NCBI RefSeq assembly: GCF_000214375.1
Contig: NC_015578.1
Coordinates: 3,410,001-3,474,000 of the forward strand
Reading direction: 5' to 3'
Length of the DNA stretch: 64,000 nt
Source: Treponema primitia ZAS-2
GTDB lineage: Bacteria; Spirochaetota; Spirochaetia; Treponematales; Breznakiellaceae
Shown in pieces: positions 4,866-48,898 of this stretch. Position numbers and translations under genes: made by a program. Under the pieces are notes generated by a model. It made no database searches and had not been told where the DNA came from. It saw nothing but the letters and a program-made list of their open reading frames with translations. Within the stretch, counting starts at the first letter, position 1, and each line of letters opens with the position of its first letter.

Positions 4866-4949
4866 GCCCGGATGGTGGAATTGGTAGACACGCTGGTTTC
4901 AGGTACCAGTGCCCTCACAGGTATGGAAGTTCGAGTCTTCTTCCGGGCA
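4866..4949 (+). tRNA. tRNA-Leu (CAG)
   Basis: The acceptor stem GCCCGGA (4866-4872) pairs with TCCGGGC (4942-4948), with discriminator A at 4949. The anticodon arm CTGGT-TTCAGGT-ACCAG gives anticodon CAG. A long variable arm of class II type follows, then a T arm with the TTCGAGT loop; CCA is not encoded. The 3' 52 bases are part of the attL repeat, so element insertion kept the tRNA intact. Confidence 0.95.
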
Positions 4950-4952
4950 GAG
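4898..4952. repeat. attL: 55-bp direct repeat at the 3' end of tRNA-Leu
   Basis: These 55 bases, from the anticodon loop to three bases beyond the acceptor stem, recur without mismatch at 48844-48898. Tyrosine recombinase elements typically create such duplications when they enter a tRNA 3' end. The integrase gene starts 152 bp inside. Confidence 0.93.
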
Positions 4953-5104: not shown

Positions 5105-6313
5105 ATGCGCTCGTTAAATGACCACGCTCTCTATTCGCTTTACAAGAAATCCTTAAAATCCGGTATTTTTTGGTACGTCCGTTTCTGGGACGAATCACTC
5201 AAAAAGTATGCCCACAGCCGTTCTACTGGGATACTCGTTGAAGGGAAGCGGGAGCGGCATCGGGAAGCCGAGGAAGCGGCCAAAGTTATGCTGCCGAGGA
5301 TATGCTTTAATACTAGCGAAAGATCTTTTATAGATTACCTCCGGGATTTTTGGACCCCTGAAAGCCGGTATGTTCGGGAATGTGCCCTGGTCAAGAAACG
5401 TCCGCTCTCTTCCTATTATATAAGAATGAATCATGACGATGTTCGCCGCCATTTGGAGGTATTTCCCGGATTCCTGGGGATCACATTACATGAACTTACC
5501 GCTGGAAAAATCCGGGATTGGATGCTCTGGATGAGCGAAAAAGGACTATCCGGTCGGCGTATCAATTCGGTCCTTCAATCCATGCGGGTTGCCGTCCGCT
5601 ATGCCATCGAACGGGAAGAAATAGAAAATGATCCCTTTAAGAAAGTACATGAGGCTACAGAACAAAGGAAGGAGAAGGGCATCCTCTCTATAGTAGAGGT
5701 AAAAAAGCTCCTGAGTACACCGATACAAGATCTCTATTCGCGTCTAGCTATTCTCCTGGGGCTTCTCTGCGGTATGCGGCGAGGTGAAGTCCGGGGACTA
5801 CTGTGGGGGGATCTTAAGGACGGACTTATCCATCTGTGCCATAACTATCAGGATAGCGATGGATTGAAGGGACCAAAATGCGGCAGTCTGAGGACCATCC
5901 CCATACCACAATCTGTCCAATCTCTCATTGAGAGCATCAAGACTATAATTGGAGAACCGGAAACGTCTTCTTTCGTTTTTATACGCCCTACTGATGAACG
6001 TATCCCTCTCAGTAATAATTTCTTCCGGTATGCTCTGGAACGGGAACTGACCGCTATTGGTATCCCTGGAGAATGGCGGAGAAAAGAGAAGGCTCCTGAT
6101 GGCTACGTTAATGAGCAGAAACAACGTAATCTTACCTTTCATGGGTTACGCCATACCTTCGTTACCTTGGGGCGTCTTGCTGGTATCACCGATTTAGAGA
6201 TCCAAGCTCTTGCAGGTCACAAAGATGCTACTATGATGAACTACTATAGTCATGCTGAACAGGTATTGGACTTTACCAGCGCAAAAGAAAAACTGGAAAA
6301 GGCAGTGGGGTGA
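5105..6313 (+). CDS. int: Tyrosine-family site-specific integrase
   Basis: The 402-residue recombinase probably inserts and excises the surrounding element at the tRNA-Leu 3' end. The catalytic signatures of the phage integrase family are present: Arg in LLCGMRRGEVRGLLW (near 224), HGLRHTF (H-x-x-R, near 345-348), GHKDATMM and the nucleophile Tyr in NYYSHAE (near 379). The N-terminal part (FWYVRFWDESLKKYAHSR) looks like an AP2-type arm-binding domain, and a SAM-like core-binding domain follows. GGAGG at 5094-5098 supports the ATG at 5105. The stop codon overlaps or abuts the parA start. It lies beside attL and is oriented away from the tRNA, so both the tRNA promoter and, in a circle, the right-end promoter could drive it. 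Confidence 0.95.
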   Translation: MRSLNDHALYSLYKKSLKSGIFWYVRFWDESLKKYAHSRSTGILVEGKRERHREAEEAAKVMLPRICFNTSERSFIDYLRDFWTPESRYVRECALVKKRPLSSYYIRMNHDDVRRHLEVFPGFLGITLHELTAGKIRDWMLWMSEKGLSGRRINSVLQSMRVAVRYAIEREEIENDPFKKVHEATEQRKEKGILSIVEVKKLLSTPIQDLYSRLAILLGLLCGMRRGEVRGLLWGDLKDGLIHLCHNYQDSDGLKGPKCGSLRTIPIPQSVQSLIESIKTIIGEPETSSFVFIRPTDERIPLSNNFFRYALERELTAIGIPGEWRRKEKAPDGYVNEQKQRNLTFHGLRHTFVTLGRLAGITDLEIQALAGHKDATMMNYYSHAEQVLDFTSAKEKLEKAVG

Positions 6314-8735: not shown

Positions 8736-10652
8736 ATGGACATGGGAATTGTAAAAAAAATTCAGGAATCGATTTGTAGTACCGGGCAAGTTCATATTAT
8801 AATGGGCCCAACAAATCAGAGGCAATTTTTAGATGCCTGCGCCTATAAACATACGTCAAAGGGTCTGGTGAAATACCAAGCTTTTAGTAACGATGTTTTT
8901 GAATTTCTCTACGCAAACGGAATTACTAATACTGCTGAACAAAAAGAGTATCTCAAGAGAATCAAACTTAATCTGTGCCTAGGCCCTGAGGAAATAAATA
9001 AGGACGCAGATCACCTAATTGTCACTAAAGAAGGGCAGTGTCTCGATATGATCGAATTAGCCCGGATAATCAAAGACGGCCAAGACACTGACAAAGAATC
9101 ACTTCGGTGGCTCAAGCCAATTACCGAATATGAAAAAAACAACCTCATCCAGCGAATGGGGGCAAATTACACTTCGAATTTCAACGATGGAAAGATAGTT
9201 CTTCAAAACTATTTAAAACTGGTTCTGTATGATTCCTCTGACGGAATGGTTGACTGGGTCATAAAGTTTTTTGCCCGATTGGTTTATGACAGAAACCATA
9301 GAAAGGAATTCGTTCGGCTCATTGGCGAAAAGAATTCTGGAAAAACTGCGATAGGAAACTTTTTATATAATCTTTTAGGAACCTATGCGGGTATTTTAAC
9401 TGATAAAGTTTTTTATGGTACTGATTCTGATACGTCAAACAAAGAACTTTTCGCTTTACAATATCACAAGGTACTGATGCATACCGAGTCCAATGCCACT
9501 AAACGGGCAAAGAATATTGACACTACGCAAATTAAGAGAATAACAGGGAATTCTCTGATAAAGTACAAGGACTGTGTTTTTTCACTACAAGTGAAGATAT
9601 TGGATGAAGGTAATGGCTTCCCTGAGTACGATGCGGACGCCGCATTCAATGAACGGGCGTATTTTATCCTATTTCGAAAGAATACAGACGTACCCAGTTA
9701 CGTCATTGATGGAGTAATTGAAGACCTCAAGACCCATAAAGATTCCATATTTTCGTATCTTCTTCATCTAAGTGCGGAAGACTTTGATAAGGAAATACTA
9801 CGGCCAGAGAGCATGAAACTTGTCCAACAATGGGTTCAATACTACAAAGATCCTGTGAAAGCTTTCTATGAGAATGCCTGTATTCGAAATCAGGCAATTA
9901 GCACTCCTGCAATAGTTGCATATCGCTTATTCCAAGAATGGGTGAGGTTATATTTAAGGCCGCATGGTGCAGATATCCCGATTCTGAAAGAAACGACCAT
10001 TCCTATTCCATCAGAGATTATATTCAATCGTAAAATGACGACACTTCATGGTTCCTTTATACCTCATCGTAACAGAGGTGCTGTATTTCAATTGCTAGAA
10101 ATCAAATGCGAAAAGAATTATTGGGGAGACTATCTGGAAGCTAAGCGGGATGGCCTTGATTTTATAGCCCGCCAGAACGTACTGGAAACTCTCGCGGATG
10201 CGAAAGGGAAGATGGAGACTGTGGACCAAGCGGAGAAAAGCGATGCAAAGGTCACTGAAAAAATTGCTGAAGTACAAAAGGATATCCAGGAACTTGCCAC
10301 TGAGAAGCCTCAAAACATGGTTGAATCTCTACTGCAAAACAACAGTATCAAGGACAATAGCTCGATCATTATTTTCAATCAATATTTAGAAGCTATGTTT
10401 TATGCCCAGTTATGCAGGCAAGATTCTCTCACCAACTGCCCGCAGAATTCATTGCTCTCTTCGGCTGCATCCATTCCGCCTCATCAGAAGTCACTTGTTG
10501 CAGAGGTTTTTGAGCCCCTGCAATCAAATCCAGAGCCTGAATATCATGTTACCAAGCCCGGACCTTATGCTGATTTTGGCCCCATTGAATACGGTCCAGA
10601 TGGGTTGATGTTCGACAATTCTACTGGTATATGGACCAAAATAGAAGAATAA
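8736..10652 (+). CDS. SF3-type helicase, phage/plasmid replication protein
   Basis: The 638-residue protein carries a superfamily 3 helicase core of the kind found at the C-terminus of D5-like phage primases: Walker A GEKNSGKTAIGNFLYNLLG (about residues 197-215), a Walker B-like KVLMHTESN, then IDTTQIKRITGNSLIKYKDC and AAFNERAYFILF, matching the sensor and arginine-finger region. No CnxCP zinc ribbon or clear primase domain is visible in the N-terminal 150 residues, so priming may be supplied elsewhere. The C-terminal 200 residues contain a charged coiled-coil region (about 490-530). AAGGAGG precedes the ATG. It is the best candidate for the replication protein of the element's free form. Confidence 0.75.
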   Translation: MDMGIVKKIQESICSTGQVHIIMGPTNQRQFLDACAYKHTSKGLVKYQAFSNDVFEFLYANGITNTAEQKEYLKRIKLNLCLGPEEINKDADHLIVTKEGQCLDMIELARIIKDGQDTDKESLRWLKPITEYEKNNLIQRMGANYTSNFNDGKIVLQNYLKLVLYDSSDGMVDWVIKFFARLVYDRNHRKEFVRLIGEKNSGKTAIGNFLYNLLGTYAGILTDKVFYGTDSDTSNKELFALQYHKVLMHTESNATKRAKNIDTTQIKRITGNSLIKYKDCVFSLQVKILDEGNGFPEYDADAAFNERAYFILFRKNTDVPSYVIDGVIEDLKTHKDSIFSYLLHLSAEDFDKEILRPESMKLVQQWVQYYKDPVKAFYENACIRNQAISTPAIVAYRLFQEWVRLYLRPHGADIPILKETTIPIPSEIIFNRKMTTLHGSFIPHRNRGAVFQLLEIKCEKNYWGDYLEAKRDGLDFIARQNVLETLADAKGKMETVDQAEKSDAKVTEKIAEVQKDIQELATEKPQNMVESLLQNNSIKDNSSIIIFNQYLEAMFYAQLCRQDSLTNCPQNSLLSSAASIPPHQKSLVAEVFEPLQSNPEPEYHVTKPGPYADFGPIEYGPDGLMFDNSTGIWTKIEE

Positions 10653-11166: not shown

Positions 11167-12387
11167 TCAATGACAATCAAGAATAGCGTCGGTGGTGATA
11201 GGTGCTAACTTGTTATTATAACAATCTGTATCGATAAATGTGGTAAAATTCACATTACTATGGTTGGCTTTTGGTACCATTTTGTTATTTTCACTACTGT
11301 CATCATTGTTCATCACATCTATATCATGTTTGATGCGGGAGAGTCGAGAACCGAGTGTATTGTGAGTGCTGCGAGCATCTTGCATGCTGTGGTGTTTGAT
11401 AATCGTGTCATCATTATCAAGTAACGAAATGAGATATCCATAACTTGAAACGATTTGATTATAACTTATACGTGTACTACCATCGTTTTTGAATTTCAAC
11501 AAGTCCTTTCCGGTATACCTTAGCTTTTCTTCCTTAGCTCCGTTGTAGATAGAACTAAAAACCGGATGAGTACTGGCATTCGTATCAACGAGAACGACAT
11601 TTAAGAAGTACTTGTAATAAAGTATGCTTAAAAGAGGTGTGAACCTTTGGATAATTTCCTTGTAAGTGCCATCAATATTATCAATGGCCAAGTATTTTGA
11701 ATTGCCCCGTGTGAGACGAAACTCGATTCTGCCTTGGTAAGGGCTGCTGTCGATTAGGCTGTGTTTAGTTTGATTATAAGCCTTATCTTTTTCTGCTGTA
11801 TTGTAGTAATCAATCGATGATTTGCGAAAATGAGGAGTGAAATCGGGCGAATATATCGTATTGAAATACTGTTTTAATACCCTTGTATCCTTATTTGTTT
11901 TTCGAAAATCCAAGTAAGTTCGTTTGCCACTTCCGGTTCCTACATCAAATACGATTGCATTATTAGATAATGATATTGATTCTAATGACATATCGAAGAA
12001 AAACTCAACTTCACTAATGCCGATTATAAATTGACGTATATTCCTAAAGATGAAGTCCTCTGTTATCTCAAAATCTTTGTCTTGTGAAATATATTTGTCC
12101 CATGTTTCGATATAGGCATTTCTGTTTATAATAATCCCTCCCTTTTTTATTCGACTGTAAAGGGCATGAGCTACGTTTTGCAATATGTTTGGTGAATGGA
12201 ATAATTCTTCTGCCTGTATATCAATATAGGTGAAGTTATTAAATCTATTTCTGATTCTTCTGATTGAAATTTTTCTGTTTGACATAAAGAATTTACTTGC
12301 ATCATAGCAATCATCAAGACATGGATGCATGATGACCGTTATTTTATCAATCCCCTCTAGAACCTGCTCGCCGTTTATAAAAACCAT
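11167..12387 (-). CDS. Uncharacterised protein, weakly like plasmid/phage replication-initiation factors
   Basis: The 406-residue protein has no motif I can name with confidence. The central part (DKAYNQTKHSLIDSSPYQGR followed by IEFRLTRGNSKYL) resembles the region of Rep_trans-type initiation factors where a Tyr-Asn-Lys/Thr stretch precedes an R-I-E-x-R-L strand. A Ser/Asp/Asn-rich tail follows residue 360. AGGAG lies at the right distance from its ATG. It is transcribed towards the helicase gene and divergent from the HTH gene at 12537. Its AT-rich codon use matches the left module. The replication link is inference; it may be something else. Confidence 0.5.
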   Translation of the reverse strand: MVFINGEQVLEGIDKITVIMHPCLDDCYDASKFFMSNRKISIRRIRNRFNNFTYIDIQAEELFHSPNILQNVAHALYSRIKKGGIIINRNAYIETWDKYISQDKDFEITEDFIFRNIRQFIIGISEVEFFFDMSLESISLSNNAIVFDVGTGSGKRTYLDFRKTNKDTRVLKQYFNTIYSPDFTPHFRKSSIDYYNTAEKDKAYNQTKHSLIDSSPYQGRIEFRLTRGNSKYLAIDNIDGTYKEIIQRFTPLLSILYYKYFLNVVLVDTNASTHPVFSSIYNGAKEEKLRYTGKDLLKFKNDGSTRISYNQIVSSYGYLISLLDNDDTIIKHHSMQDARSTHNTLGSRLSRIKHDIDVMNNDDSSENNKMVPKANHSNVNFTTFIDTDCYNNKLAPITTDAILDCH

Positions 12388-13708: not shown

Positions 13709-13754
13709 GGAAAAGCGCTAGGTACCTTCCCTAAACGGTCCCTGGCGCTTTTCC
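13709..13754. terminator. Inverted repeat between convergent genes
   Basis: GGAAAAGCGC (13709-13718) pairs with GCGCTTTTCC (13745-13754). The right arm overlaps the end of the DUF2971 gene. Confidence 0.4.
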
Positions 13755-14570
13755 AGGCGTTGCTCCCGTACTGCCCCAACCGGGAGACTGTGGGATGGGC
13801 TCAATATCATAGGAATCCAATTTCTGGCGCATATTAAAATATTCAATACCGGGAACAATATCCATCAGGTGCATCCAATTTATGGTTAACATTCTCAAGC
13901 CGAAATAAAATTTAACAGGTTTGCAATGAATAAAACAGCGTTTTGGAGCTTTATAAAAACGCAAAGACCTCAGCCAGAAGTAATACGGAATACCTATGCC
14001 GCTTTTCTGCCTCGCTTCATAATCAAGGCGCTCAAGCTCATCAAACTCTTTCCTATCAATTTCCTCCGGGGTTATTTTAAGGACAGCACGCCATTCCTTC
14101 TCGTAGTCCCAATGGCTTGATTTTGTGAGCAACACAGTCTTTACATCCGTATCGGTAACGCCAGATACGACTGGCATGGCAGTCGCATAAGCAACTTGTT
14201 CTAAAAACGAAATGCTTGCTTCGATTTCACTTTTCTTGTAGGCAACACAAAAACCTTGATGGGAATTGGTGTAATGGGACCACATAAGGGGATTGTCATA
14301 GGTTTCGGTAAAACAACCTATCCTATAGTTATGGTTGATTTCAGACATCAGTTCGCTATGGCGTATAAAGGGCGGCGGCGTGGGCCTACCATGTATGGTA
14401 GCGGGAACCGCAACGCCTGGTACATATTTTCCAAAGCCCTCGAAGGGGTCATTGAAATAGCTCACATCATTCAAACAGAGTTCATTTTTACCTATATTAT
14501 CAAAGGCATGCTGAGAATTTGAATAATATTTATACAGTAAATCATCACTCCCAATCGGCGTTGCTGGCAT
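13731..14570 (-). CDS. DUF2971 domain protein
   Basis: The 279-residue protein has the DUF2971 layout: LLYKYYSNSQHAFDNIGKNE near the start, LCLNDVSYFNDPFEG, then RIGCFTETYDNPLMWSHYTN, GFCVAYKKSEI and KSSHWDYEKEWRAVLKI. The conserved F-N-D-P-F, S-H-Y and E-W-R motifs are all there. The function of the family is not settled; members are frequent in accessory and defence regions. AAGGAG precedes the ATG. It is a single gene, convergent with the short frame at 13523 and separated from the polymerase gene by 172 bp on the other side. Confidence 0.8.
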   Translation of the reverse strand: MPATPIGSDDLLYKYYSNSQHAFDNIGKNELCLNDVSYFNDPFEGFGKYVPGVAVPATIHGRPTPPPFIRHSELMSEINHNYRIGCFTETYDNPLMWSHYTNSHQGFCVAYKKSEIEASISFLEQVAYATAMPVVSGVTDTDVKTVLLTKSSHWDYEKEWRAVLKITPEEIDRKEFDELERLDYEARQKSGIGIPYYFWLRSLRFYKAPKRCFIHCKPVKFYFGLRMLTINWMHLMDIVPGIEYFNMRQKLDSYDIEPIPQSPGWGSTGATPGKAPGTV

Positions 14571-14742: not shown

Positions 14743-17691
14743 CTATACCCCCACCACCCGCCCCACCTCCACCGAAACCGCCCCGTTATCCTCACACACC
14801 CTTCCATACACCAGCAGCGGCGCCTGGTCAAACAGCAGCCGCCCATACCGCTCATACACCCCAGGAAAAATCACCGTCTCATACAGCGCCGTCTCATCCT
14901 CAAAGGTCAGAAAGCTCATAGTAAGCCCGTCCTTAGTCCAGACCTCCTTCTGGGTAACAGGCCACCCCAGAAGGCACACAGACTGCCCAATATATTCCCC
15001 AACATACCGCCCCTTAACCCGCCGCAATCCTCTAATCTTATCCTTCCACAGCGCCAGCGGATGCAGCCCCCGCAGAAACCCCAGCGCCCGGTATTCCTCC
15101 CATAACTCCTCATCACCCGTTTTCTGCTTCACCGGAGCCGTAGCCAGTACAGCCCCCCCGCCAGTCCGGTAAACCGGGGTAACCTCCGCAGCAAATAATT
15201 CATCCTGCCCCTTACGGCTCGCCCCGGTATGTGCCTTCAACAATTCCCGCGCCTGCAACGCCCTGGGCAAGCCCCCGGCAATGCCGTCAAACACCCCCGC
15301 AGGGCAGAGCGCGATCACATCATCCCGCCCCAGCCGTACCCGCCGCAGGAAATCTGACAGCGACCGGAACTCCCCGCCCTTTTCCCGCTCAGCAACAATC
15401 GCCGCCCCCCCGGAAGCAGACAGCCCCTTAACCGCCATCAGCCCCACAACAACCCGCTTCCCCATGCCGTAGTACCGCCAGCGGCTGGCATTCACATCAG
15501 GCCCCTCCACAGCCAGCCCCATCCTCCGGCACTCGGCAATATACGCATGGGGCCTATAATAACCACCTTGGTTACTCAGCACCGCCGCCATAAACTCACC
15601 CGGATGGTGAACCCGCAGATACGCCGACTGAAACGACACCATAGCATAGGAAGCCGAATGGGGCTTACAAAAACTATACCCGTCAAAAGACAGCATCATT
15701 TCCCAAATCTTTTGTATCACCTCATCAGCAACACCGTTCTTCCTGCACCCTTCAAAAAACTGCTTTTCATAAACAGCCAGCTTAACCCCCGCTTTCTTGG
15801 CAATAACCTTCCGCAGTTTATCCGCCTCAACTTCGTCAAACCCCGCCAGGGCAACCGCAGTTTTACTCACATCTTCCTGATAACACAGAATCCCGTAGGT
15901 CTCATCCAGGATATACGCCAGCCGTGGATGAAGGGGCGCCCATTCCCCGCCCTTGAGCCGCCTGACATATTCGTTAATAAACTTATTCGCCGCAGGCCGG
16001 ATAATAGACGAATGGATTACAATATGGGAAAAATCCCCAGCCCCGGTCTTTTTCTGCAACTGCCGCATAGCCGGGGACTCGATATAAAACACCCCCATGG
16101 AATCCCCCCGTGCCAGAGCCGCAACAGTAGCCCCATCCTCAACAGGCCGCCATGTATCCCGGTCAATGGCAATGCCCTGTTCCCCCAGATTTGCCAAGGC
16201 ATCCCGGATAACCGCCAAAGACCTATTCCCCAGCAAATCAATCTTCACAAACCCCGCGCTTTCGGTCCCGTCCTTTTCCCAGCTTAAAAGGGGGTATCCA
16301 TCCAGAGAACTTTCAATCGGCACATATTTATCTATCCGCTCAGGCGTAATCACCAGCCCCCCGCAGTGCATAGACAGCCCACGGGGCAGCCCTTCAATTT
16401 TTTTCGCAATGTCAAGAATTTCCAACCAGAGCGGATCACTCACACCCGATTTATCCCCAAAGTGAAACAACTGTTTTTCAATTTGCGAAATCTCAGCATC
16501 CCCAAACCCATAGGCCTTTGCCGCTTCACGAAACGCCGACCGGGGCCTGAACATATTATGGTTTGCCACCCGTGCGCAGTGTTCAGGGCCAAACCGCTCT
16601 ATCACCCGCTTAATCAGATCGTCCCGTTCATCCCAGGCAAAGTCCACATCAATATCAGGCGGGTCAGGCCGCGCCGGATTCAGAAACCGCTCAAAATACA
16701 GCTTGTGCGCCAGGGGATCAACATTGGTAATCCCCAGGGAATAGGACACAATAGACGCCGCCCCCGATCCCCGACCACAGGTCCGGGAAGCCATGCGGAC
16801 AATATCATCCATCACGAGGAAATAGGGCGCAAACCCCTTGCTGTTGATAATTCCCAATTCATACTCAATCCGCCCCAGCTCAGCGTCCCCCAGTTCCCCA
16901 TACCGGGCCGCCGCCCCTTCCAGTACCCGGCTATACAATTCCTCCCCAGGCGATAGTTCCGTTGCGTATCCGGGAAAAATCCAATCTTCAAATAGTTCAT
17001 GGTAAACACAAGCAGCACTAATCTCCTTCGTCCCCTTCACTGCCTCAGGCCATGACCGCAGGCGCCCCTCCAGGGCCGCATCAGAAAGGAGCAAATGGCT
17101 GTCTTTTTTTACCGCGTCCCCTTCGCCCAAATTACCCACCGTTTTACCCAGGCCAATAGCCCGTAAAGCCCGGTGAACCGGGTAATCCTCTTTTTCCAAA
17201 AACAGTGCAGTATCCAGAAAGGCCAGGGGTATACCAAGCCTGCGGCTGGGGCCAATGGCCCCAAGGGAATCAGGCGTTATTGCCCCATACAAAGCGTTAG
17301 CCCGGCCCGCCAAAGCTTCCAAAATAATTTCATCAGATGAAGCCAGAATAAGCCCGGCAGAATTTTGCCGCAGCAATGATACGGGCTTGTAATTTTCCGT
17401 ATCCCGGTTTCTCATGGTCAGCAGTTCGCAGAGCCGGGAATACCCCCGCCGATCCCGGACAAAGCAATACACCAGCCCCTTATCAGGTACAGTCAGGCAA
17501 GCGCCGATAATAGGGCGCACTCCCATTTCCTTAGACTTTTCCAGAATAACCGGAAGCCCGTACAGATTATCCCGGTCAGTAAAACTAATAGTATCAATAC
17601 CCAGAGCCTTGACCGCTTGTATCAAATCCTCCGGCCTCCGCACCCCATAGAGCAAAGAGTAAGCCGAACAAAGCCCCAGGCGTTCAAGCAT
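14743..17691 (-). CDS. dnaE2: DnaE-type DNA polymerase III alpha subunit, error-prone (ImuC/DnaE2-like)
   Basis: The 982-residue protein is a C-family polymerase shorter than replicative DnaE (about 1,150). The catalytic Asp residues are kept in PDPPDIDVDFAWDERDDLI and FVKIDLLGNRSLAVI; GRGSGAASIVSYSLGITNVD and YQEDVSKTAVALAGF are also typical. The N-terminal PHP domain (LGLCSAYSLLYGV) lacks the metal-binding His residues usual in L-H-x-H-S, so it has probably no proofreading activity. The OB-fold C-terminus is present (VCLLGWPVTQKEVWTKDG). Its start overlaps the ImuB-like gene by 8 bp. Together with that gene it matches the ImuB-DnaE2 translesion cassettes, in which this subunit makes the bypass. 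It could instead be a general repair polymerase. Confidence 0.82.
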   Translation of the reverse strand: MLERLGLCSAYSLLYGVRRPEDLIQAVKALGIDTISFTDRDNLYGLPVILEKSKEMGVRPIIGACLTVPDKGLVYCFVRDRRGYSRLCELLTMRNRDTENYKPVSLLRQNSAGLILASSDEIILEALAGRANALYGAITPDSLGAIGPSRRLGIPLAFLDTALFLEKEDYPVHRALRAIGLGKTVGNLGEGDAVKKDSHLLLSDAALEGRLRSWPEAVKGTKEISAACVYHELFEDWIFPGYATELSPGEELYSRVLEGAAARYGELGDAELGRIEYELGIINSKGFAPYFLVMDDIVRMASRTCGRGSGAASIVSYSLGITNVDPLAHKLYFERFLNPARPDPPDIDVDFAWDERDDLIKRVIERFGPEHCARVANHNMFRPRSAFREAAKAYGFGDAEISQIEKQLFHFGDKSGVSDPLWLEILDIAKKIEGLPRGLSMHCGGLVITPERIDKYVPIESSLDGYPLLSWEKDGTESAGFVKIDLLGNRSLAVIRDALANLGEQGIAIDRDTWRPVEDGATVAALARGDSMGVFYIESPAMRQLQKKTGAGDFSHIVIHSSIIRPAANKFINEYVRRLKGGEWAPLHPRLAYILDETYGILCYQEDVSKTAVALAGFDEVEADKLRKVIAKKAGVKLAVYEKQFFEGCRKNGVADEVIQKIWEMMLSFDGYSFCKPHSASYAMVSFQSAYLRVHHPGEFMAAVLSNQGGYYRPHAYIAECRRMGLAVEGPDVNASRWRYYGMGKRVVVGLMAVKGLSASGGAAIVAEREKGGEFRSLSDFLRRVRLGRDDVIALCPAGVFDGIAGGLPRALQARELLKAHTGASRKGQDELFAAEVTPVYRTGGGAVLATAPVKQKTGDEELWEEYRALGFLRGLHPLALWKDKIRGLRRVKGRYVGEYIGQSVCLLGWPVTQKEVWTKDGLTMSFLTFEDETALYETVIFPGVYERYGRLLFDQAPLLVYGRVCEDNGAVSVEVGRVVGV

Positions 17692-18901
17692 TTGAACCCA
17701 CCGGCAAAGCCAGCGCAGGCCCCCTCCGGGAAGCTACCAACACCGTCCCAGTAGTTAGCATAGCCAGCCCATATTTATTCCGTACCTTATCCGCCGCTTC
17801 CTGCAATTTCCGCTGTTTTGTATCTTCCGCTATCTCGAACAAATCAGGCGACCACCCCAAAGGCCGCAGATCCCCCAGGGTCAGCGTAATACTCCGAACC
17901 CTCAGCCGCCGCACCACCGCTTTCAGGTACACCCGTTCCGCCGCCCCCGCAATATCCCTATCCGTAACACAAAGCCGCCTGAGTTTTTCCTGCCCCTCCA
18001 CCCGGACCCCATCAGCGTACACAATGCCCAGAGCCACCGCCCCAGCCCCCCATTTCTGCCCCCGCATTTCAATGCCCCCCGTTTCCGCCAGAAGCATAAG
18101 GCCACCCCGGATAACATCAAAATCCAGGGTATCCTCCGCAAGCTCCAAATGTTTTTCTATCCGCCGTTCCCCCAGGAAAGCCGCCACCACCGGGCTATCA
18201 TCAATACCCCGCGCCGTGTCCCTGAGCCGCCGCCCATGCTTCCCGAAAAGGGCAATCGCCTCCCCGTCAGAAAGGCAAGCCAGCTCCCCAATCTCCCGCA
18301 GCCCCGTAACCGCCGCAGTCCGCAAAAGGGACGGCCCCATACCGGGAAGCAAACACAAATCCTGGTGGATCAAAAAATCCGGTTCCCCCCCGGCCTGAAT
18401 CTGGATAAGCCCCATAGGCCGAATAGTCCGGGTCGCAATCTTGCCAACCAGCTTATTACCCGCCACCGCCGCCGCAGGGCGGATGCCAACCCGTTCCAGC
18501 ATCTCCCGCAGAATCCGGCTCGCACAATCCGCCGCAGGCCCGAACAGCCGGGCCGTCCCGGTCAGGTCCAAATACAAATTGCCAAATTGGTCATTCTCAT
18601 AAATCGGCGCATACACCGAAGCAATCTTTTCCAGTTCCCTATTCATAGCCGCATACGAAGCAGGGTCAGGCGCCAACACCGGCAAATCCCTCACCAGCCG
18701 TTCCGCAACCGCCAACGCCATACCGGGGCTAATCCCCTCCCGCAGAGCCTCAGGCGAAAGGTCAAGCACCAAAGCCCGCCCCCCCGTAGCCCCGGCAACA
18801 ACAAAAGGCCGCCCCCGGAGCGCCCCGTCCTTTTGAGCCGCCACCGCCGCCCGGAACCCGATAATATTAAGATGGCAAACCGCCCGGTTTATGTTCCCCA
18901 T
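17684..18901 (-). CDS. imuB: ImuB-like Y-family polymerase homologue, probably catalytically inactive
   Basis: The 405-residue protein follows the Y-family plan: LNIIGFRAAVAAQKDGALRG, FVVAGATGGRALVLDLSPEA, YLDLTGTARLFGPA and an HhH region (LCLLPGMGPSLLRTAAVTGL). The first catalytic motif, normally D-x-D-x-F-F, reads NIIGFR, and the Asp-Glu pair expected before YLDLTG is replaced by Gly-Asn. Loss of these acids is the hallmark of ImuB, which acts as the clamp-bound adaptor for DnaE2. A clear clamp-binding motif at the C-terminus was not identified. The gene follows the DUF72 gene by 2 bp and overlaps the polymerase gene by 8 bp. Confidence 0.8.
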   Translation of the reverse strand: MGNINRAVCHLNIIGFRAAVAAQKDGALRGRPFVVAGATGGRALVLDLSPEALREGISPGMALAVAERLVRDLPVLAPDPASYAAMNRELEKIASVYAPIYENDQFGNLYLDLTGTARLFGPAADCASRILREMLERVGIRPAAAVAGNKLVGKIATRTIRPMGLIQIQAGGEPDFLIHQDLCLLPGMGPSLLRTAAVTGLREIGELACLSDGEAIALFGKHGRRLRDTARGIDDSPVVAAFLGERRIEKHLELAEDTLDFDVIRGGLMLLAETGGIEMRGQKWGAGAVALGIVYADGVRVEGQEKLRRLCVTDRDIAGAAERVYLKAVVRRLRVRSITLTLGDLRPLGWSPDLFEIAEDTKQRKLQEAADKVRNKYGLAMLTTGTVLVASRRGPALALPVGSNA

Positions 18902-18903
18902 GT

Positions 18904-19707
18904 TCAGCCCGATATTTCGCCCAATCCCGCCCGTTTCAAAATCTCTAACAGCGTTTGTGCGTTCTGTACCGCCTGCCCCCGCGCATGGTTGTTAAAGTAC
19001 ACCAAAATCCTATCCGCCTGCACTTCGATCCGCCGTATCCGGTCAAGCCAGGCTTCAAGCTCCCGCTCGTTGTACAGGTAGTCATACCGGGCCACCTCAT
19101 CGGACCCCCACCATGCCCCGGCATTCCGCCCATGGAGCCGGATATACGCAAAGGGCGCCGTAACCACATCCAGAGCCGGGGGCAGCTTCGCCAAATCCGG
19201 CATATCCAGCGCCACCAGCGCCGCCCCCTGTTTTCGCATACCCTCGATCATCCTCGCGGTATACCAGTCCGCCACCCGGAATTCCACCGCAAGGGGAACC
19301 CCCTGAAAACAAGAAAGCACATCCCGCAAATAGCGCCGATTCTCAGTTGTATAATGGAACGAATAGGGAAACTGGAATAAAACCGCTTCCAGCCTCCCGG
19401 CTTGCAGGACCGGTTCTATGGCTTCCCGGTATGTCTCCGCCTCAGCCTTCCAGTTATTGGGGTCAATTTTATGGGTCAGGCTCTGGTGCGCCTTTGCGGA
19501 AAAGCCCAAGCCCGGCCCCCCGTCAACCAGCATTTTTGCCAAATTTGCCGCCTTGGGCATGGAATAGTAGGTATAGTCCAGCTCGACCGTGTTAAACCGC
19601 TTCGCATACAGGGATAGATAGTCCTCTTTTTTGGTTCCCAGAGGGTACACCGGCCCCAGCCAGTCGGTATAATAAAACCCGCAGGTTCCCACCACAATTT
19701 TTGCCAT
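18904..19707 (-). CDS. DUF72 family protein, first gene of the mutagenesis operon
   Basis: The 267-residue TIM-barrel-like protein has clear DUF72 marks: IVVGTCGFYYTDWLGPVYP at the start, FNTVELDYTYYSMP, FSAKAHQSLTHK, AVLFQFPYSFHYT, LAVEFRVADWY and ILVYFNNHARGQAVQNAQTL. The biochemical role of DUF72 is unknown. The gene is first in a three-gene leftward operon and lies downstream of the 19-bp palindrome. It may take the position that imuA or imuA' fills in other translesion cassettes; that is inference from position only. Confidence 0.85.
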   Translation of the reverse strand: MAKIVVGTCGFYYTDWLGPVYPLGTKKEDYLSLYAKRFNTVELDYTYYSMPKAANLAKMLVDGGPGLGFSAKAHQSLTHKIDPNNWKAEAETYREAIEPVLQAGRLEAVLFQFPYSFHYTTENRRYLRDVLSCFQGVPLAVEFRVADWYTARMIEGMRKQGAALVALDMPDLAKLPPALDVVTAPFAYIRLHGRNAGAWWGSDEVARYDYLYNERELEAWLDRIRRIEVQADRILVYFNNHARGQAVQNAQTLLEILKRAGLGEISG

Positions 19708-19762: not shown

Positions 19763-19781
19763 GGTGATTAAAATAATCACC
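19763..19781. promoter_or_regulatory. Perfect 19-bp palindromic operator candidate
   Basis: GGTGATTAAAATAATCACC has 8-base arms around AAA. It lies between the divergent DUF72-imuB-dnaE operon and the S24 regulator gene, 56 bp and 38 bp from the two start codons, as expected for the binding site of that regulator. It differs from the Gram-positive and enterobacterial LexA boxes. Confidence 0.65.
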
Positions 19782-19818: not shown

Positions 19819-20442
19819 ATGGAAACCGAGGAAGAACGCTATAATTTTCTTCAAAAACGCTCCGGTTTATCAAAATTGGAGTTTGCCCGGAGCCTGGGGG
19901 TATCAAAAGAGCGGGGGTATTCCCTCTCAAAAGGCATTTACCACGCTTCCCGTGAAATTCTGGACAAATTGTCCTCGATATATAACGTCAACCTAAACTG
20001 GTTCCTTCTGGGGGAAGGCTCCCCCTTTGAGACCGAAAAAGTCGCTATACGGCTGCTTCGCCAGGAAGCCGCCGCCGGACGGGGCCGGGAGATAGAAGAC
20101 TATGCCGAGGAGGAGACCCTCAAGCTCCCCCGATCCCTTGTCAGCCCCTACCGCCCGGAAAACTTGCAGGCCGTCTATGTCGCCGGGGATTCCATGATAG
20201 GCGAACACATCTACAATGGCGATGCGGTTATTTTTCACCCCGGCCAGACCGAAGGCAACGGCATCTATGTCCTGTCCCTGGACACCGCCCTACTGGTCAA
20301 ACGGGTGTCCTTTGACGAGCTGCCCCGGTCAGTCTCCCTCATCAGCGCCAACCAAGCCTATCCCCCCCGACAAATAGTAGGGGAAGAACTGGAAAATCTG
20401 CGGATTGAAGGACGTGTGGTTACTTGCATTCATAAGGTTTGA
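19819..20442 (+). CDS. LexA/CI-like self-cleaving transcriptional regulator (HTH + peptidase S24)
   Basis: The 207-residue protein has an N-terminal XRE-type HTH (LSKLEFARSLGVSKERGYSL) with the usual phage-repressor tail YNVNLNWFLLGEGSPF. The S24 domain keeps the nucleophile Ser in YVAGDSMIGEHI (near 124) and the Lys in ALLVKRVSF (near 160). An Ala-Gly pair in RQEAAAGRGRE (near 86) is the likely self-cleavage site. Such proteins repress DNA-damage genes until RecA filaments trigger cleavage. It is divergent from the mutagenesis operon across a perfect palindrome, so it probably controls that operon and itself. GAGG precedes the ATG. Confidence 0.88.
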   Translation: METEEERYNFLQKRSGLSKLEFARSLGVSKERGYSLSKGIYHASREILDKLSSIYNVNLNWFLLGEGSPFETEKVAIRLLRQEAAAGRGREIEDYAEEETLKLPRSLVSPYRPENLQAVYVAGDSMIGEHIYNGDAVIFHPGQTEGNGIYVLSLDTALLVKRVSFDELPRSVSLISANQAYPPRQIVGEELENLRIEGRVVTCIHKV

Positions 20443-20473: not shown

Positions 20474-22309
20474 GTGGCAGATAAAATTTCAATTAAGATT
20501 AACCAAGATGTACCAGATTCACAAATAAAAAAATGCGAATTTAAATTGCCATATTTTACAATATTAACTGGAAAGAATGGGACAGGGAAGACCCATTTAA
20601 TAGAAGCAATAAATAATCAAAATTGTACTATTGTAAATGCAAATGACGGTAAAATATGCCAGAAAATAAAATACATCAAATTTGCTGCGTTACGTGCTGA
20701 TATCAATGAAGTTTACAATTCATCTGAAATTCATAATGTATTCGAAAATATAAAAAATTCATATGATCAAGCGTTAGTAAACCATCCGAATAATCCAGAA
20801 CCGATTGATATTATTAACGAAACAGTGGGAAATCTTTGTATGAACTTTGGTTACTCTCAAAATAAAATTAACAACTTAACAACTTTATTCGAGAAAGCAA
20901 TTTTATCATCAGGCGGTAACTTTCGCAAATTAAATATTGATTATATATCAGAAAATTTTGATGTAACCTTATTAGAAAATAATAATGATTTGTTTATAGC
21001 AAATATCACAGGGATATTTTCATATTACCATCGAATGGAAATTGTTAATAAATTAAAAAAGATAGAAGCTACTGAAAAAAGGTATTCTAAAAATTTTTAT
21101 TTATCTGATAGAGAGTTTGTCCAAAAATATGGAAAGGCGCCTTGGGACAGTATTAATACTGTTTTATCAGTGTTAGAATTGCCTTACATGGTAACAAAGC
21201 CAGAGCAATATGAAACTGATTTTGTGTTTCACTTAAAATTAAAAGATATTAGTACTGGCATTGAGATTAGTCCTTCAAAACTCTCAACCGGTGAACAAGT
21301 CTTAATGTCATTGGCAATGGCTAAATATAATTCAGGCAGAGACTTTGAAAAAATAGATTTGTTGTTGATTGATGAACCGGATGCCGGCCTTCATCCTTCA
21401 ATGTCAAAAAAAATGATTGAAATATTAAAGCGAGATATAGTCGACAGCGGTATACCTGTAATAATTAGTAGTCATTCACCGACTACTATTGTGGCAGCAG
21501 ATAATGAAAATATTTATGAAAAAGAACGTGGTATATCAATACCAAAGCAAAGTACCATACAAGAAGCTATTGAAATATTGACAAAAGATATTCCTTTTTT
21601 GGAAGTGTCAATGAACCAAACTCGGCAGATTTTTGTAGAAAGTGAATATGATGCATCTTCTTTTGATAAAATATCGCACATTTTCTGCAAAAATTTGAAT
21701 AGTCTAAATCTTGTATTTCTCCCAACAAAAGGAAAAAAGGAAAATGGGGCAAATTGCGAGAATGTGAAGTTCATTTTAAACAGATGCAAAGATAATCCTA
21801 ATATTTATGGAATAATTGACGGTGATGCCAAAAGAGAGCAAGCGGATAACAGCAAATTGTTAATATTAGGTAATGGGAAAAGATATGCAATTGAAAATTA
21901 CATTCTGGATCCTTTGCTAATGGGGTTGTGGTTTATAAAAATTGGTAAAAGGGAACCTTTGCATTTTGATTTGACATTTTCTTCATATGCGGAAACAATG
22001 AATAATTTAGATGAAATATCTGCTCAAAAAATCATCAATAAAGTATTGACTGATATTGAAATGATTTCTGGTGAAAAGGTAACATATTTAACATTCAACA
22101 ATTGGACGTTAAGTATCACAAATGTATTTTGCAAATGTCAAGGCCATGAAGCAGAAGGCGAGAGTTATAGAAAATATGATTTTTTGAATCCTAATATTTC
22201 GCAATATAAAGGAGATTATCTTAAAAAAGAAGTTATTAAGAGTATATGGACGGATTGCTATCAGTATTCGCCAAAAGAAATATATGATACATTAAAAAAT
22301 ATTCGTTAG
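20474..22309 (+). CDS. ABC-type ATPase with C-terminal DUF4435/TOPRIM-like domain (candidate defence protein)
   Basis: The 611-residue protein has an SMC/OLD-like ATPase: Walker A LTGKNGTGKTHLIEAI (33-40), signature KLSTGEQVLMSLAMA, Walker B LLLIDEPDAGLHPS (near 300) and switch His in ISSHSPTTI. From about residue 380 a second domain reads RQIFVESEYDASSF, then YGIIDGDAKRE and AIENYILDP, matching the acidic residues of TOPRIM/DUF4435 domains. OLD nucleases and the PARIS defence system (AriA ATPase, AriB DUF4435) use these parts; here both are on one chain. The gene starts with GTG, 31 bp after the S24 regulator. GC content falls sharply at this point, which signals separate acquisition. Target and trigger are unknown. 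Confidence 0.72.
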   Translation: MADKISIKINQDVPDSQIKKCEFKLPYFTILTGKNGTGKTHLIEAINNQNCTIVNANDGKICQKIKYIKFAALRADINEVYNSSEIHNVFENIKNSYDQALVNHPNNPEPIDIINETVGNLCMNFGYSQNKINNLTTLFEKAILSSGGNFRKLNIDYISENFDVTLLENNNDLFIANITGIFSYYHRMEIVNKLKKIEATEKRYSKNFYLSDREFVQKYGKAPWDSINTVLSVLELPYMVTKPEQYETDFVFHLKLKDISTGIEISPSKLSTGEQVLMSLAMAKYNSGRDFEKIDLLLIDEPDAGLHPSMSKKMIEILKRDIVDSGIPVIISSHSPTTIVAADNENIYEKERGISIPKQSTIQEAIEILTKDIPFLEVSMNQTRQIFVESEYDASSFDKISHIFCKNLNSLNLVFLPTKGKKENGANCENVKFILNRCKDNPNIYGIIDGDAKREQADNSKLLILGNGKRYAIENYILDPLLMGLWFIKIGKREPLHFDLTFSSYAETMNNLDEISAQKIINKVLTDIEMISGEKVTYLTFNNWTLSITNVFCKCQGHEAEGESYRKYDFLNPNISQYKGDYLKKEVIKSIWTDCYQYSPKEIYDTLKNIR

Positions 22310-22399
22310 GTAATAAGTGCAAATATCAATTAAGAAGTGTAAAATGACTATGGCAGACGAAAAAAAGTAAGAATACTCAGAGCTATATAGGATTGAATA

Positions 22400-23143
22400 A
22401 TGGGATATTCAAAAGGCATTGTTTACTTTATTGATATTCTGGGGTCTAAAAAGAGAATAGATGATTTTGACGGATCATTAAAAATTAATAATATTTTTCA
22501 TGGGTCTTTATATGATCTAGAAACATTAGCAAATTTTGACTGTGGTGAAAAATATGTTACATCATTTTCGGATTGTGCATATATTATATTTAAAATGAAA
22601 GATGAGTATAGTGATGATAAAATGTTTGTAAAATATCTTTATCATAGTTTGGATGAAATTTCAATGTTGATGCGTAATTTTGTTTCCAATAAATTTCTCT
22701 GTAGAGGGGGTATCGCAATGGGAAATTTGTATTTTGATGAAACAAAAAATATTATGTTTGGTCCAGCGATAAATAATGTATATGAATTGGAACAAAAAGC
22801 AAAAATGCCTCGCTTGATATTTGATGATGATTTGGCAAAAATGCTATTAGATTATGAAACAGAACTTAAGAAAAATGATAAGTATTTTAATATTTTTGTT
22901 CGTTATCTTGATATTATAATGAAAGATAATATGGATCATAGATATTTTCTAAATTATCTGGCGGGATCTCCGATGTTGCTAGATAATTCTATCGACTATT
23001 ATGCCCGACAACAAGAATGGGTTAAAAATATCATTGAAAAAGAACCAGATCATGAAATTGTTGCCAAATATAATTGGCATTTGGATTTTTTAACAACCGT
23101 TAAAAATGATTATGTTATAAATCGAGATGAAAGAGATGTTTAA
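22400..23143 (+). CDS. Class III nucleotide cyclase-like protein
   Basis: The 247-residue protein keeps the order of class III cyclase motifs: YFIDILGSKKR with an Asp after a beta strand (near 11), SFSDCAYIIFK (near 55-65), CRGGIAMGNLYF, which matches the cyclase R-x-G-I-x-x-G motif (near 100), and MFGPAINNVYELEQKAKMPR, which matches G-x-x-V-N-x-A-x-x-L-x-x-x-A (near 120-140). No regulatory or membrane domain is present. It follows the ATPase gene by 90 bp, on the same strand and with the same very low GC. Product nucleotide and activity cannot be deduced, and some members of such families may be inactive. Confidence 0.55.
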   Translation: MGYSKGIVYFIDILGSKKRIDDFDGSLKINNIFHGSLYDLETLANFDCGEKYVTSFSDCAYIIFKMKDEYSDDKMFVKYLYHSLDEISMLMRNFVSNKFLCRGGIAMGNLYFDETKNIMFGPAINNVYELEQKAKMPRLIFDDDLAKMLLDYETELKKNDKYFNIFVRYLDIIMKDNMDHRYFLNYLAGSPMLLDNSIDYYARQQEWVKNIIEKEPDHEIVAKYNWHLDFLTTVKNDYVINRDERDV

Positions 23144-23246: not shown

Positions 23247-23249
23247 CCG

Positions 23250-23271
23250 GGCCGCTCCGTATGGGGTGGCC
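23250..23271 (+). repeat. Leader hairpin 1 (before RadC-like gene)
   Basis: GGCCGCTCC and GGGGTGGCC pair with two G-T wobbles around GTAT. It is the first of the recurrent gene-leader hairpins of this region and lies 26 bp before the start codon. Confidence 0.55.
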
Positions 23272-23296
23272 TTATTCATTTACAGGAGGAATCTCT

Positions 23297-35907: not shown

Positions 35908-36058
35908 ATCTCTTTTTACCCTGTGGATTGGATTCCTCGTCGGAGACCTTGCCCATGAGTTCCAGCGAGGAGTTTACCAGGGAGGCCATATCAACGGTCA
36001 GCTATATTCAAGAGAATATTAGGGGGCTTGTGGACTACGATAATTTTACCCGGTGGAT

Positions 36059-36307
36059 TTATTCGCGGCAGAAGCTTTTGACATAGTCGGCGTCCGGCTG
36101 CAATTCAGACAATTCCTCTGCGGATAGGCCAGTGATGGCCATGATCTGGTCCGCATACAGACCGTGGTGTTGTAGCTGGTGGGCTATCTCGTCCATCAAG
36201 GCGGTATAGGCTATGATCATGCCCTCCTCTTTGCCTTCGGCAAATCCCTCTCTGCGGCCCTGTGCCAGCCCTTTTTGATAGGCAAAAAACGTAGTTTTTC
36301 TGTGCAT
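36059..36307 (-). pseudogene. C-terminal remnant of an Rpn-family nuclease/transposase
   Basis: The 82-residue frame reads TTFFAYQKGLAQGRREGFAE, then GKEEGMIIAYTALMDEIAHQ and MAITGLSAEELSELQPD. This is the typical tail of Rpn (YhgA-like, PD-(D/E)XK) proteins with their Q-G-x-x-E-G repeats and the I-x-x-x-T-G-L-S-x-E-E-I end. The roughly 200-residue nuclease domain is missing, so it is a fragment, although it has its own ATG. Confidence 0.7.
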
Positions 36308-36391
36308 AAAAAGCCTCCGATACGATACGGCTTGTATATGGATTTTGCTTTAATGGGGGAAAATATTTTTAGGTACTAGTACGGCGATAGC

Positions 36392-36422
36392 AAACAAAGC
36401 CCGGTAACCCCGGGCTTTGTTT
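36392..36422. terminator. Bidirectional terminator
   Basis: AAACAAAGCCCGG (36392-36404) pairs exactly with CCGGGCTTTGTTT (36410-36422). It ends transcription of the leftward BspA-like lipoprotein gene. Confidence 0.75.
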
Positions 36423-36447
36423 CGTCAGCTAGTTTTTCGCCTTGCGC

Positions 36448-38583: not shown

Positions 38584-38784
38584 AGCAACTCCTCGGACCT
38601 ACTGGTCCACATGCACAGGGTTTTCCCCCATACACCCCCCTTTATGGAGCCGCCGTGAAAAATGCTTTAGCGGGAACTTATTTTTTGTGCGATTTTTTGT
38701 TTTTTTCGGGAAAAACGGCGCCTGCCGCCCAACAGCGTTTTCTTGCTATACAGAGCCGGGTATGGTAGTATAGGGGGTATGGAT

Positions 38785-39036
38785 ATGGAGTTACAGATCA
38801 TCTGTATTCCCTCAGCTTTCAGGCATGGTGTTACTGAAGCGGACATTCAATGGGCCTTTAATACCGTCAAGTATGACCACCTTGTGGTCGGGTTTGATAA
38901 CAAATACCTGTTGTTGGGCTTCGATACCAAGGGTAATCCGCTGGAAGTGATGTACCATGATTTGGGCGAAAACAGGGTGAAGGTATTTCATGCCATGACC
39001 TGTAGGAAAGAACTTATTCCATTGATGAACGAATAG
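38785..39036 (+). CDS. Putative toxin of a type II toxin-antitoxin pair
   Basis: The 83-residue protein has the pattern AFRHGVTEADIQWAFNTVKY, then DNKYLLLGFDTKGNPLEVMY and VKVFHAMTCRKELIPLM. This resembles small toxins of the BrnT-like kind (G-x-D-x-x-G-x-x-L-E-V-x-Y followed by H-A-M-x-x-R). ATG 38785 with AGGGGG seven bases upstream is chosen; ATG 38779 is too close to the ribosome site. An antitoxin-like gene follows 9 bp later. Confidence 0.65.
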   Translation: MELQIICIPSAFRHGVTEADIQWAFNTVKYDHLVVGFDNKYLLLGFDTKGNPLEVMYHDLGENRVKVFHAMTCRKELIPLMNE

Positions 39037-39045
39037 GAGAACCGT

Positions 39046-39276
39046 ATGCAAGACATTACCGACCGGGAAGGGGAAGCGCTGGACGAATACTATACCACCC
39101 ATTTACCAACAACCGATCCGTCCAAAGGCGGCGTTACCACCCGGCAGGGCTTTCGCATGGTGGCGCTCGACCGCCTTTCAGAGGACTACCTGGTAACCAG
39201 GGCGATTGCTACCCACAAGACCCCTACGGAGATCATCGGCGAGCTGGTCCGGGAGAAAATCGCCGCTTCTGCATAA
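39046..39276 (+). CDS. Putative antitoxin
   Basis: The 76-residue protein starts MQDITDREGEALDEYYTTHL and contains RLSEDYLVTRAIATHKTPTE, IIGELVREKIAAS, a pattern like ribbon-helix-helix antitoxins with a C-terminal helix. It follows the toxin-like gene by 9 bp with AGGAG in between. A second antitoxin-like gene and a broken toxin lie on the other strand 100 bp away. Confidence 0.6.
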   Translation: MQDITDREGEALDEYYTTHLPTTDPSKGGVTTRQGFRMVALDRLSEDYLVTRAIATHKTPTEIIGELVREKIAASA

Positions 39277-39305
39277 GCGCACGCTCCGGTTGCTCCCTTT
39301 TCCCT

Positions 39306-39362
39306 GGGAACCGGCGGGGGGCGGCAAGTTCCGCAGGAACTTGCCGCCCCCCGCCGGTTCCC
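39306..39362. repeat. Perfect 27-bp inverted repeat with a 3-base loop
   Basis: The arms (39306-39332 and 39336-39362) match perfectly around GCA and contain GGCAAGTTCC / GGAACTTGCC, the family C palindrome also at 41993-42013. T-rich sequence follows at 39366-39370. It lies between two convergent toxin-antitoxin pairs and probably ends both transcripts. Confidence 0.85.
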
Positions 39363-39378
39363 CCCTTTTTCCGGGCGC

Positions 39379-39582
39379 CTATTCTGCGGCGTCCAACGCC
39401 GCTTGCAGCGCAGCACGCGCCTGGGGGTCCAGCTTCCGGGGTTTCGCGCTGCGCTGGCTGTGGGGGTTTGGGATGGCCCGGTACGCCCCTCGATCCAGTG
39501 CGGCATACACATCGGCCACCAGTACATCGGCCACCGCATCGGTAATCGGCGTGCCATCGTCCAGTGTTTCAATCCTGTCCAT
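39379..39582 (-). CDS. Putative antitoxin of a second, damaged pair
   Basis: The 67-residue protein starts MDRIETLDDGTPITDAVADV and ends LDPQARAALQAALDAAE. ATG 39582 has GGAGG upstream and overlaps the end of the toxin fragment by 14 bp, an overlap usual in toxin-antitoxin pairs. An upstream ATG at 39603 in the same frame would overlap the fragment further. The family is only inferred from this context. Confidence 0.55.
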   Translation of the reverse strand: MDRIETLDDGTPITDAVADVLVADVYAALDRGAYRAIPNPHSQRSAKPRKLDPQARAALQAALDAAE

Positions 39583-39722
39583 CCGGACCTCCCTCGGACC
39601 CACCGGCCCGCTGCAATTTTTTCAGTATGTCGATAACGTTCTTAGTCGCTTTCATGGCGTGGATGACAATCTCCTCGCCGTTAATCTTTACCACGGTAAC
39701 CACTTCCAGCGCCCGCCCCCCC
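39569..39722 (-). pseudogene. Truncated toxin fragment
   Basis: The leftward frame reads ALEVVTVVKINGEEIVIHAM, then KATKNVIDILKKLQ to a TGA at 39569-39571. It matches the C-terminal half of the toxin-like protein at 38785-39036 (L-E-V-x-Y ... H-A-M-x-x-R). The 5' half is missing and a C-run and a terminator of the next gene follow immediately. The antitoxin gene remains intact. Confidence 0.6.
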
Positions 39723-39726
39723 CCCT

Positions 39727-42119: not shown

Positions 42120-42126
42120 GCCCGTT

Positions 42127-48843: not shown

Positions 48844-48898
48844 TTCAGGTACCAGTGCCCTCACAGGTATGGAAGTTCGAGTCTTCTTCCGGGCAGAG
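48844..48898. repeat. attR: 55-bp direct repeat, partial tRNA-Leu
   Basis: It is identical to 4898-4952. The 5' part of the tRNA is absent (TGAAAAGACGCGGATTTTGG precedes it), so it is not a working tRNA gene. Confidence 0.93.

What the first reader, a model, noticed from the sequence alone, without database searches (positions are those of the whole stretch)
20474..23143. AT-rich ATPase-DUF4435 and cyclase-like pair: candidate new defence or signalling system
The ATPase-TOPRIM/DUF4435 chain combines parts that PARIS splits into AriA and AriB and that OLD nucleases also use. Beside it sits a compact class III cyclase-like protein with no regulatory domain, as in nucleotide-signal defence systems. 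Both are about 30 % GC in a 50 % GC setting, in an element that also carries a damage-type regulator directly upstream. ATPase nuclease plus cyclase is not a combination I know.
Basis: partly seen in the sequence, partly recalled or inferred. Interest (0 to 1): 0.78.

Follow-up and report, generated by a model that had tools for sequence, protein, structure and literature searches.

The report
Lone defence-type ATPase beside cyclase-fold gene
Two AT-rich genes on a mobile element in a termite-gut spirochaete are real, one resembling known single-gene phage-defence ATPase-nucleases and the other folding like a nucleotide cyclase, but they are found side by side only here, so they look like two separate cargo genes rather than a new two-part defence system.

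Summary
Both genes are real and were read largely correctly. The ATPase (20474-22309) has an intact ABC-type ATPase domain and a Toprim/DUF4435-like C-terminus. It is close to single-gene PARIS fusions, class 1 OLD and retron ATPases. The second protein (22400-23143) is predicted to fold as a class III nucleotidyl cyclase: the top 50 PDB matches are all such cyclases, first of all a Pycsar uridylate cyclase. It keeps both metal-binding aspartates but lacks the transition-state arginine.

The proposed system is not supported. About 30 relatives of the ATPase (prophages, plasmids, genomes) have no such cyclase nearby. Thirty-three relatives of the cyclase-fold protein have no relative of this ATPase subfamily nearby; two lie near other OLD-type ATPases. 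The pair occurs only here.

Both are cargo of a 44-kb integrative element in tRNA-Leu (55-bp repeats, tyrosine integrase). The genome length equals that of Treponema primitia ZAS-2. The ATPase directly follows a self-cleaving S24 repressor, divergent from an ImuB/DnaE2-type cassette. In phage records its relatives cluster with SOS genes (SRAP, UmuC).

Verdict: an ordinary-to-interesting defence cargo region. The cyclase-fold family has no Pfam, NCBIfam or PADLOC model and deserves attention on its own.

The parts
20474..22309 (+). OLD/PARIS-like ABC-type ATPase with C-terminal Toprim/DUF4435-like domain, 611 aa, GTG start
22400..23143 (+). class III nucleotidyl-cyclase-fold protein (CYC), 247 aa, stand-alone
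19819..20442 (+). S24-peptidase (LexA/CI/UmuD-type) repressor, 31 bp upstream of the ATPase, same strand
19763..19781 (.). perfect 19-bp palindrome GGTGATTAAAATAATCACC in the divergent intergenic region: candidate operator (inference)
23249..23272 (+). terminator-like hairpin after CYC (pattern match only)
18904..19707 (-). DUF72 protein, first gene of the divergent cassette
17684..18901 (-). Y-family polymerase, ImuB/DinB type (IMS)
14743..17691 (-). DNA polymerase III alpha, DnaE2-type
4898..4952 (+). 55-bp direct repeat, left attachment site within the 3' half of tRNA-Leu(CAG) and 3 bp past it
48844..48898 (+). 55-bp direct repeat, right attachment site
5105..6313 (+). tyrosine integrase of the element
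13731..14570 (-). DUF2971 protein, PADLOC defence candidate PDC-S31, a further cargo gene

Best explanation
The two genes are separate cargo of a 44-kb tRNA-Leu integrative element. The ATPase is a self-contained single-gene effector of the OLD/PARIS kind. By analogy, paired ABC-type heads bind ATP and sense an intruder, and the C-terminal two-metal Toprim/DUF4435 domain then cuts nucleic acid (tRNA as in AriB, or DNA as in OLD), stopping the infected cell. CYC is a stand-alone class III cyclase-fold protein that moves between mobile elements on its own. It probably binds a nucleotide with two metal ions, but with a non-canonical site, and its product is unknown. Both probably ride in one transcript behind a self-cleaving S24 repressor, so they are read when DNA is damaged or another phage induces the cell. 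Shown here: ORFs, domains, predicted folds, invariant residues, element borders, lack of pairing elsewhere. Inferred: nuclease substrate, sensing, co-transcription, damage control, defence role.
For: ATPase: AAA_21 1.6e-14. PADLOC ATPase-Toprim_I-B 3.9e-19, AriA 7.6e-18 and AriAB 5.9e-13; these profiles match all 24 family members. Walker A (T32 G33 N35 G36 G38 K39), signature S271 G273 E274, Walker B D300 E301, H334, and Toprim-type E389, D393, D449, D451 are invariant. Model pLDDT 83.7, nearest PDB folds retron PtuA, T. scotoductus OLD and GajA. CYC: model pLDDT 79.9, top 50 PDB matches all class III cyclases; D12 in 33 of 33 aligned and D58 in 34 of 34. No pairing: some 30 ATPase loci and 33 other CYC sequences, none with both of these subfamilies; 12 genomes with CYC relatives hold no such ATPase. 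Element: 55-bp repeats, integrase. Regulator: S24, palindrome between divergent promoter-like sites, no terminator-like site between the repressor gene and 23062. SOS genes near ATPase relatives: SRAP within 2.5 kb in 7 of the 8 phage records that have one (random mean 1.0, P about 1e-5) and UmuC-type polymerase in 3 of 3 (P 0.0014).
Against: No activity or expression is shown. The pair is on one strand, 90 bp apart, with the same low GC, as a real operon would be. Three CYC relatives lie near other OLD-type ATPases: L003 beside a Gabija operon, L093 and L094 near OLD proteins. The DUF4435 call does not reach Pfam level in the window protein itself. SOS clustering in phages may only reflect a shared accessory site, and L068/L069 are close relatives.
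Confidence: 0.72

Rival explanations
1. The two genes are a rare, genuine two-part defence system: CYC makes a nucleotide signal on infection and the ATPase-Toprim protein is its effector.
For: Same strand, 90 bp apart, shared low GC, no terminator-like site between them. The fold of CYC is nearest to a Pycsar uridylate cyclase. Three CYC relatives lie near other OLD-type ATPases.
Against: The pair was found nowhere else. The ATPase stands without a CYC relative in more than 25 phage and plasmid settings. No nucleotide-signal-binding domain was found in the ATPase. The CYC site lacks the usual transition-state Arg and its specificity positions vary.
Confidence: 0.1
2. CYC is catalytically dead and acts as a structural or nucleotide-binding partner of other cargo, or as a guard of the element.
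For: Position 129, the transition-state Arg of class III cyclases, is Glu in 13 of 34 and Arg in only 4 of 34; position 125 (Asn) is kept in 9 of 34.
Against: D12 and D58, the two metal ligands, are essentially invariant, which is hard to explain without metal-nucleotide chemistry.
Confidence: 0.3
3. The ATPase is an SOS-linked DNA-repair or recombination ATPase of mobile elements rather than a defence gene.
For: It follows an S24 repressor opposite an ImuB/DnaE2-type cassette, and phage relatives cluster with SRAP and UmuC. An archaeal OLD ATPase works in the cell cycle, not in defence (PMC12796447, abstract).
Against: Close similarity to defence ATPases; variable accessory position in prophages, typical of cargo.
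Confidence: 0.2

Closest known systems
PARIS, single-gene AriAB fusion (AAA_15/AAA_21 + DUF4435)
   Same: ATPase N-terminus and DUF4435/Toprim C-terminus in one chain; AriAB profile matches all 24 family members
   Different: The window protein does not reach PF14491 itself; best profile stretch covers residues 265-494 only; no anti-restriction trigger known
Class 1 OLD nucleases (P2 Old, T. scotoductus OLD)
   Same: Lone gene, ABC ATPase plus Toprim, often in prophages; fold match to 6p74
   Different: Low identity (10%); no match to Pfam OLD-like_TOPRIM
Retron type I ATPase effectors (PtuA; ATPase-Toprim_I-B)
   Same: Best PADLOC profile (3.9e-19) and best PDB folds
   Different: No reverse transcriptase or retron RNA seen beside it; PtuA lacks Toprim and uses the HNH protein PtuB (established knowledge)
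Pycsar pyrimidine cyclase (PycC) and class III cyclases
   Same: Fold; two metal aspartates in the same motifs (F-x-D; F-S-D hairpin)
   Different: No PycTM or PycTIR-type receptor beside it; non-canonical specificity and transition-state residues; no PADLOC or Pfam match for the window protein
DUF2652 cyclase-like proteins (PMC4886424)
   Same: Uncharacterised cytosolic class III cyclase-fold proteins of bacteria
   Different: DUF2652 members keep specificity pairs and, in mycobacteria, the Arg; CYC does not match that Pfam family

Membership tests
PARIS (fused AriAB) | AAA_15 or AAA_21 ATPase domain above cut-off | tested here: met
   AAA_21 55.2 bits (cut-off 27), AAA_15 48.2 (32.1)
PARIS (fused AriAB) | DUF4435 (PF14491) domain | tested here: inconclusive
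   Not in the window protein, in 4 of 24 relatives, best 6.6e-5; acidic residues invariant
PARIS (fused AriAB) | Activated by phage anti-restriction protein, tRNA cleavage | not testable with these tools
   needs experiment
Class 1 OLD | Lone gene with ABC ATPase and Toprim in one chain | tested here: met
   in the window it lies behind an S24 gene
Class 1 OLD | OLD-like Toprim domain (PF20469) | tested here: not met
   not among the families matched by any of 24 members at E 0.01
Class 2 OLD (Gabija) | Adjacent UvrD-like GajB | tested here: not met
   neighbours are S24 and CYC
Retron type I | Reverse transcriptase and retron RNA beside the ATPase | tested here: not met
   no RT among neighbours, no Rfam hit except tRNA
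Class III nucleotidyl cyclase | Fold | tested here: met
   top 50 PDB matches, best E 2.6e-5
Class III nucleotidyl cyclase | Two metal-binding Asp | tested here: met
   D12, D58
Class III nucleotidyl cyclase | Transition-state Asn and Arg | tested here: not met
   N125 kept in the window protein, Arg position is E129; Arg in 4 of 34 sequences
Pycsar | Adjacent cNMP receptor (PycTM, PycTIR) | tested here: not met
   neighbours are the ATPase and RadC; no PADLOC match for CYC
New ATPase-plus-cyclase system | Recurrent linkage in unrelated genomes | tested here: not met

The most novel reading that the evidence does not exclude
CYC belongs to an undescribed, widely mobile family of stand-alone class III cyclase-fold enzymes with a non-canonical active site, often placed in defence islands (beside Gabija, OLD, TIR/SpbK and SIR2 genes in relatives), which makes a new nucleotide signal or modifies nucleotides in phage defence; here it may be coupled to a damage-induced Toprim ATPase.
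Probability: 0.15. Interest if true: 0.75.

Novelty: new variant of a known kind. Interest (0 to 1): 0.4.

Why it matters
It corrects a tempting claim: a defence-type ATPase next to a cyclase is not a new system when neither gene keeps the other elsewhere. It leaves two testable leads: a cyclase-fold family in several phyla with no Pfam, NCBIfam or PADLOC model and an unusual active site, and a lone Toprim ATPase lineage that sits with SOS genes in prophages and behind a self-cleaving repressor here, suggesting damage-controlled defence.

Tried and rejected
Searched phage records for CYC and ATPase by tblastn: no match. Single-protein scans of viral contigs found none; the ATPase alignment found 29 loci. 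Looked for a copy of the right flank elsewhere in the genome to find an empty site: only the window copy. Hairpin after CYC as a structured RNA: fold no better than shuffles. Retron: no retron RNA or RT. Pycsar: no receptor. A PADLOC check of eight further CYC neighbours gave nothing, so the defence-island link of CYC is partial (5 of about 30 loci, and those neighbours were picked by eye).

Full report
Observation. Their GC is 30.0% and 27.4%, against 49.5% for the element. The genome is one contig of 4,059,867 bases, the published length of Treponema primitia ZAS-2, CP001843 (PMC5039349); the name is therefore an inference from length.

Setting. The tRNA-Leu(CAG) at 4866-4949 ends in a 55-bp stretch (4898-4952) repeated exactly at 48844-48898, with a tyrosine integrase at 5105-6313. 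ParA-like and ParB-like proteins follow, by reading only. The two genes are thus cargo of a 43.9-kb integrative element. Other cargo includes a DUF2971 protein matching the PADLOC candidate PDC-S31 at 1.6e-32 and a DUF72, ImuB-like, DnaE2-type cassette on the minus strand. Facing that cassette is an S24-type repressor gene (19819-20442); in the gap between them lies a perfect 19-bp palindrome at 19763-19781, flanked by divergent promoter-like sites. No terminator-like site is found between the repressor, the ATPase and CYC; one lies inside the end of CYC (23062) and a stronger one at 23249. That these form one damage-controlled transcript is an inference.

The ATPase. Pfam gives AAA_21 and AAA_15 above cut-off. 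PADLOC gives ATPase-Toprim_I-B, AriA, AriAB, Old, PtuA and GajA, and the top profiles match all 24 aligned relatives. Invariant residues cover Walker A, the ABC signature, Walker B, the switch His and the Toprim acids E389, D393, D449, D451. DUF4435 is recognised in 4 of 24 relatives but not in the window protein. The model (pLDDT 83.7, pTM 0.54) is nearest to retron PtuA, SMC/Rad50 heads, T. scotoductus OLD and GajA; TM-scores are low (0.2-0.3), with domain placement uncertain. PARIS is known both as two genes and as a single-gene fusion (PMC9122126), and class 1 OLD are single genes (PMC10568477). So the chain itself is not a new combination.

The cyclase-like protein. No Pfam, NCBIfam or PADLOC family matches it; PHROG 23933, of unknown function, does (2.5e-19). 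The model (pLDDT 79.9, pTM 0.81) finds 50 PDB entries at E below 0.001, all class III cyclases, led by the Anabaena uridylate cyclase of Pycsar. Across 34 sequences the metal aspartates D12 and D58 are invariant where aligned, as are R102 and G15, with S57 nearly so; the Asn position (125) is kept in 9 and the Arg position (129) holds Arg in only 4, Glu in 13 (register). In pyrimidine cyclases the metal aspartates are the conserved catalytic residues and the base-contacting residues differ between clades (PMC11224242). An active but unusual enzyme is therefore possible; activity is not shown.

Do they belong together? CYC relatives came from plasmids, Spirochaetota (14 of 296 genomes), a genome-collection scan (8 loci), the phylum of Pseudomonas viridiflava (8 of 398) and the phylum of a Lachnospiraceae bacterium (3 of 398). 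ATPase relatives came from plasmids (4), Spirochaetota (2 of 296 including the window), viral contigs (29) and the phylum of P. viridiflava (2 of 398, a lower bound since only three candidates per genome were scored). A profile search of these loci found both subfamilies together only in the window. Twelve genomes holding CYC relatives gave no match to this ATPase. One genome (G628) has both, about 866 kb apart. In L003 and L093 CYC relatives lie near ATPases of other OLD lineages: a Gabija operon (GajA 2.6e-203, GajB 8e-181) and an OLD-like protein.

What CYC keeps company with. Its relatives sit in what reads as an integron-like cassette array in T. putidum, on plasmids, next to DUF3800 in two Lachnospiraceae, and in five loci near defence genes: Gabija (L003), OLD-like (L093, L094), SpbK/TIR and SIR2-like (L098), PDC-S62 (L097). 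Those neighbours were picked by eye; eight more gave nothing. The link to defence islands is suggestive only.

SOS company of the ATPase. In 25 phage records with an ATPase relative, SRAP occurs in 8 and lies within 2.5 kb in 7 (random mean 1.0, P about 1e-5); UmuC-type polymerase occurs in 3 and is within 2.5 kb in all (P 0.0014). Related phages and a common accessory site weaken this, but it agrees with the window, where the ATPase follows an S24 repressor beside an ImuB/DnaE2-type cassette.

Conclusion. The most likely reading is two separate cargo genes: a single-chain OLD/PARIS-like defence effector, probably damage-controlled, and a stand-alone cyclase-fold protein of unknown product.

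Noticed in passing
4898-48898: 43.9-kb integrative element in tRNA-Leu(CAG) with 55-bp direct repeats, tyrosine integrase and ParA/ParB-like genes; a shorter copy of the tRNA end also at 49062.
   Followed up: partly
13731-14570: DUF2971 protein matching PADLOC candidate PDC-S31 (1.6e-32): a second candidate defence gene in the same element.
   Followed up: no
14743-19707 and 19763-19781: DUF72, ImuB-like and DnaE2-type cassette divergent from the S24 repressor, with a perfect 19-bp palindrome between them: a candidate repressor-controlled mutagenesis cassette in a spirochaete.
   Followed up: partly
36000-46000: Stretch of 60-72% GC inside the element with very large lipoprotein-like ORFs, one with collagen-like GPAGPMGPAG repeats (36448-38583).
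   Followed up: no
L046-L070: Phage records: relatives of the ATPase cluster with SRAP and UmuC-type genes within 2.5 kb more than random placement gives.
   Followed up: partly
L098 4178-7682: A CYC relative sits between an SIR2-like gene and a TIR protein matching SpbK (5.3e-66), all on one strand.
   Followed up: no
L039 and L040, 7989-9941: In two Lachnospiraceae a CYC relative is followed directly by a DUF3800 gene in different surroundings; a DUF3800 gene also lies in the T. putidum array (L027).
   Followed up: no
8736-10652 and 11167-12387: Two AT-rich ORFs of the element without Pfam or PADLOC matches.
   Followed up: no
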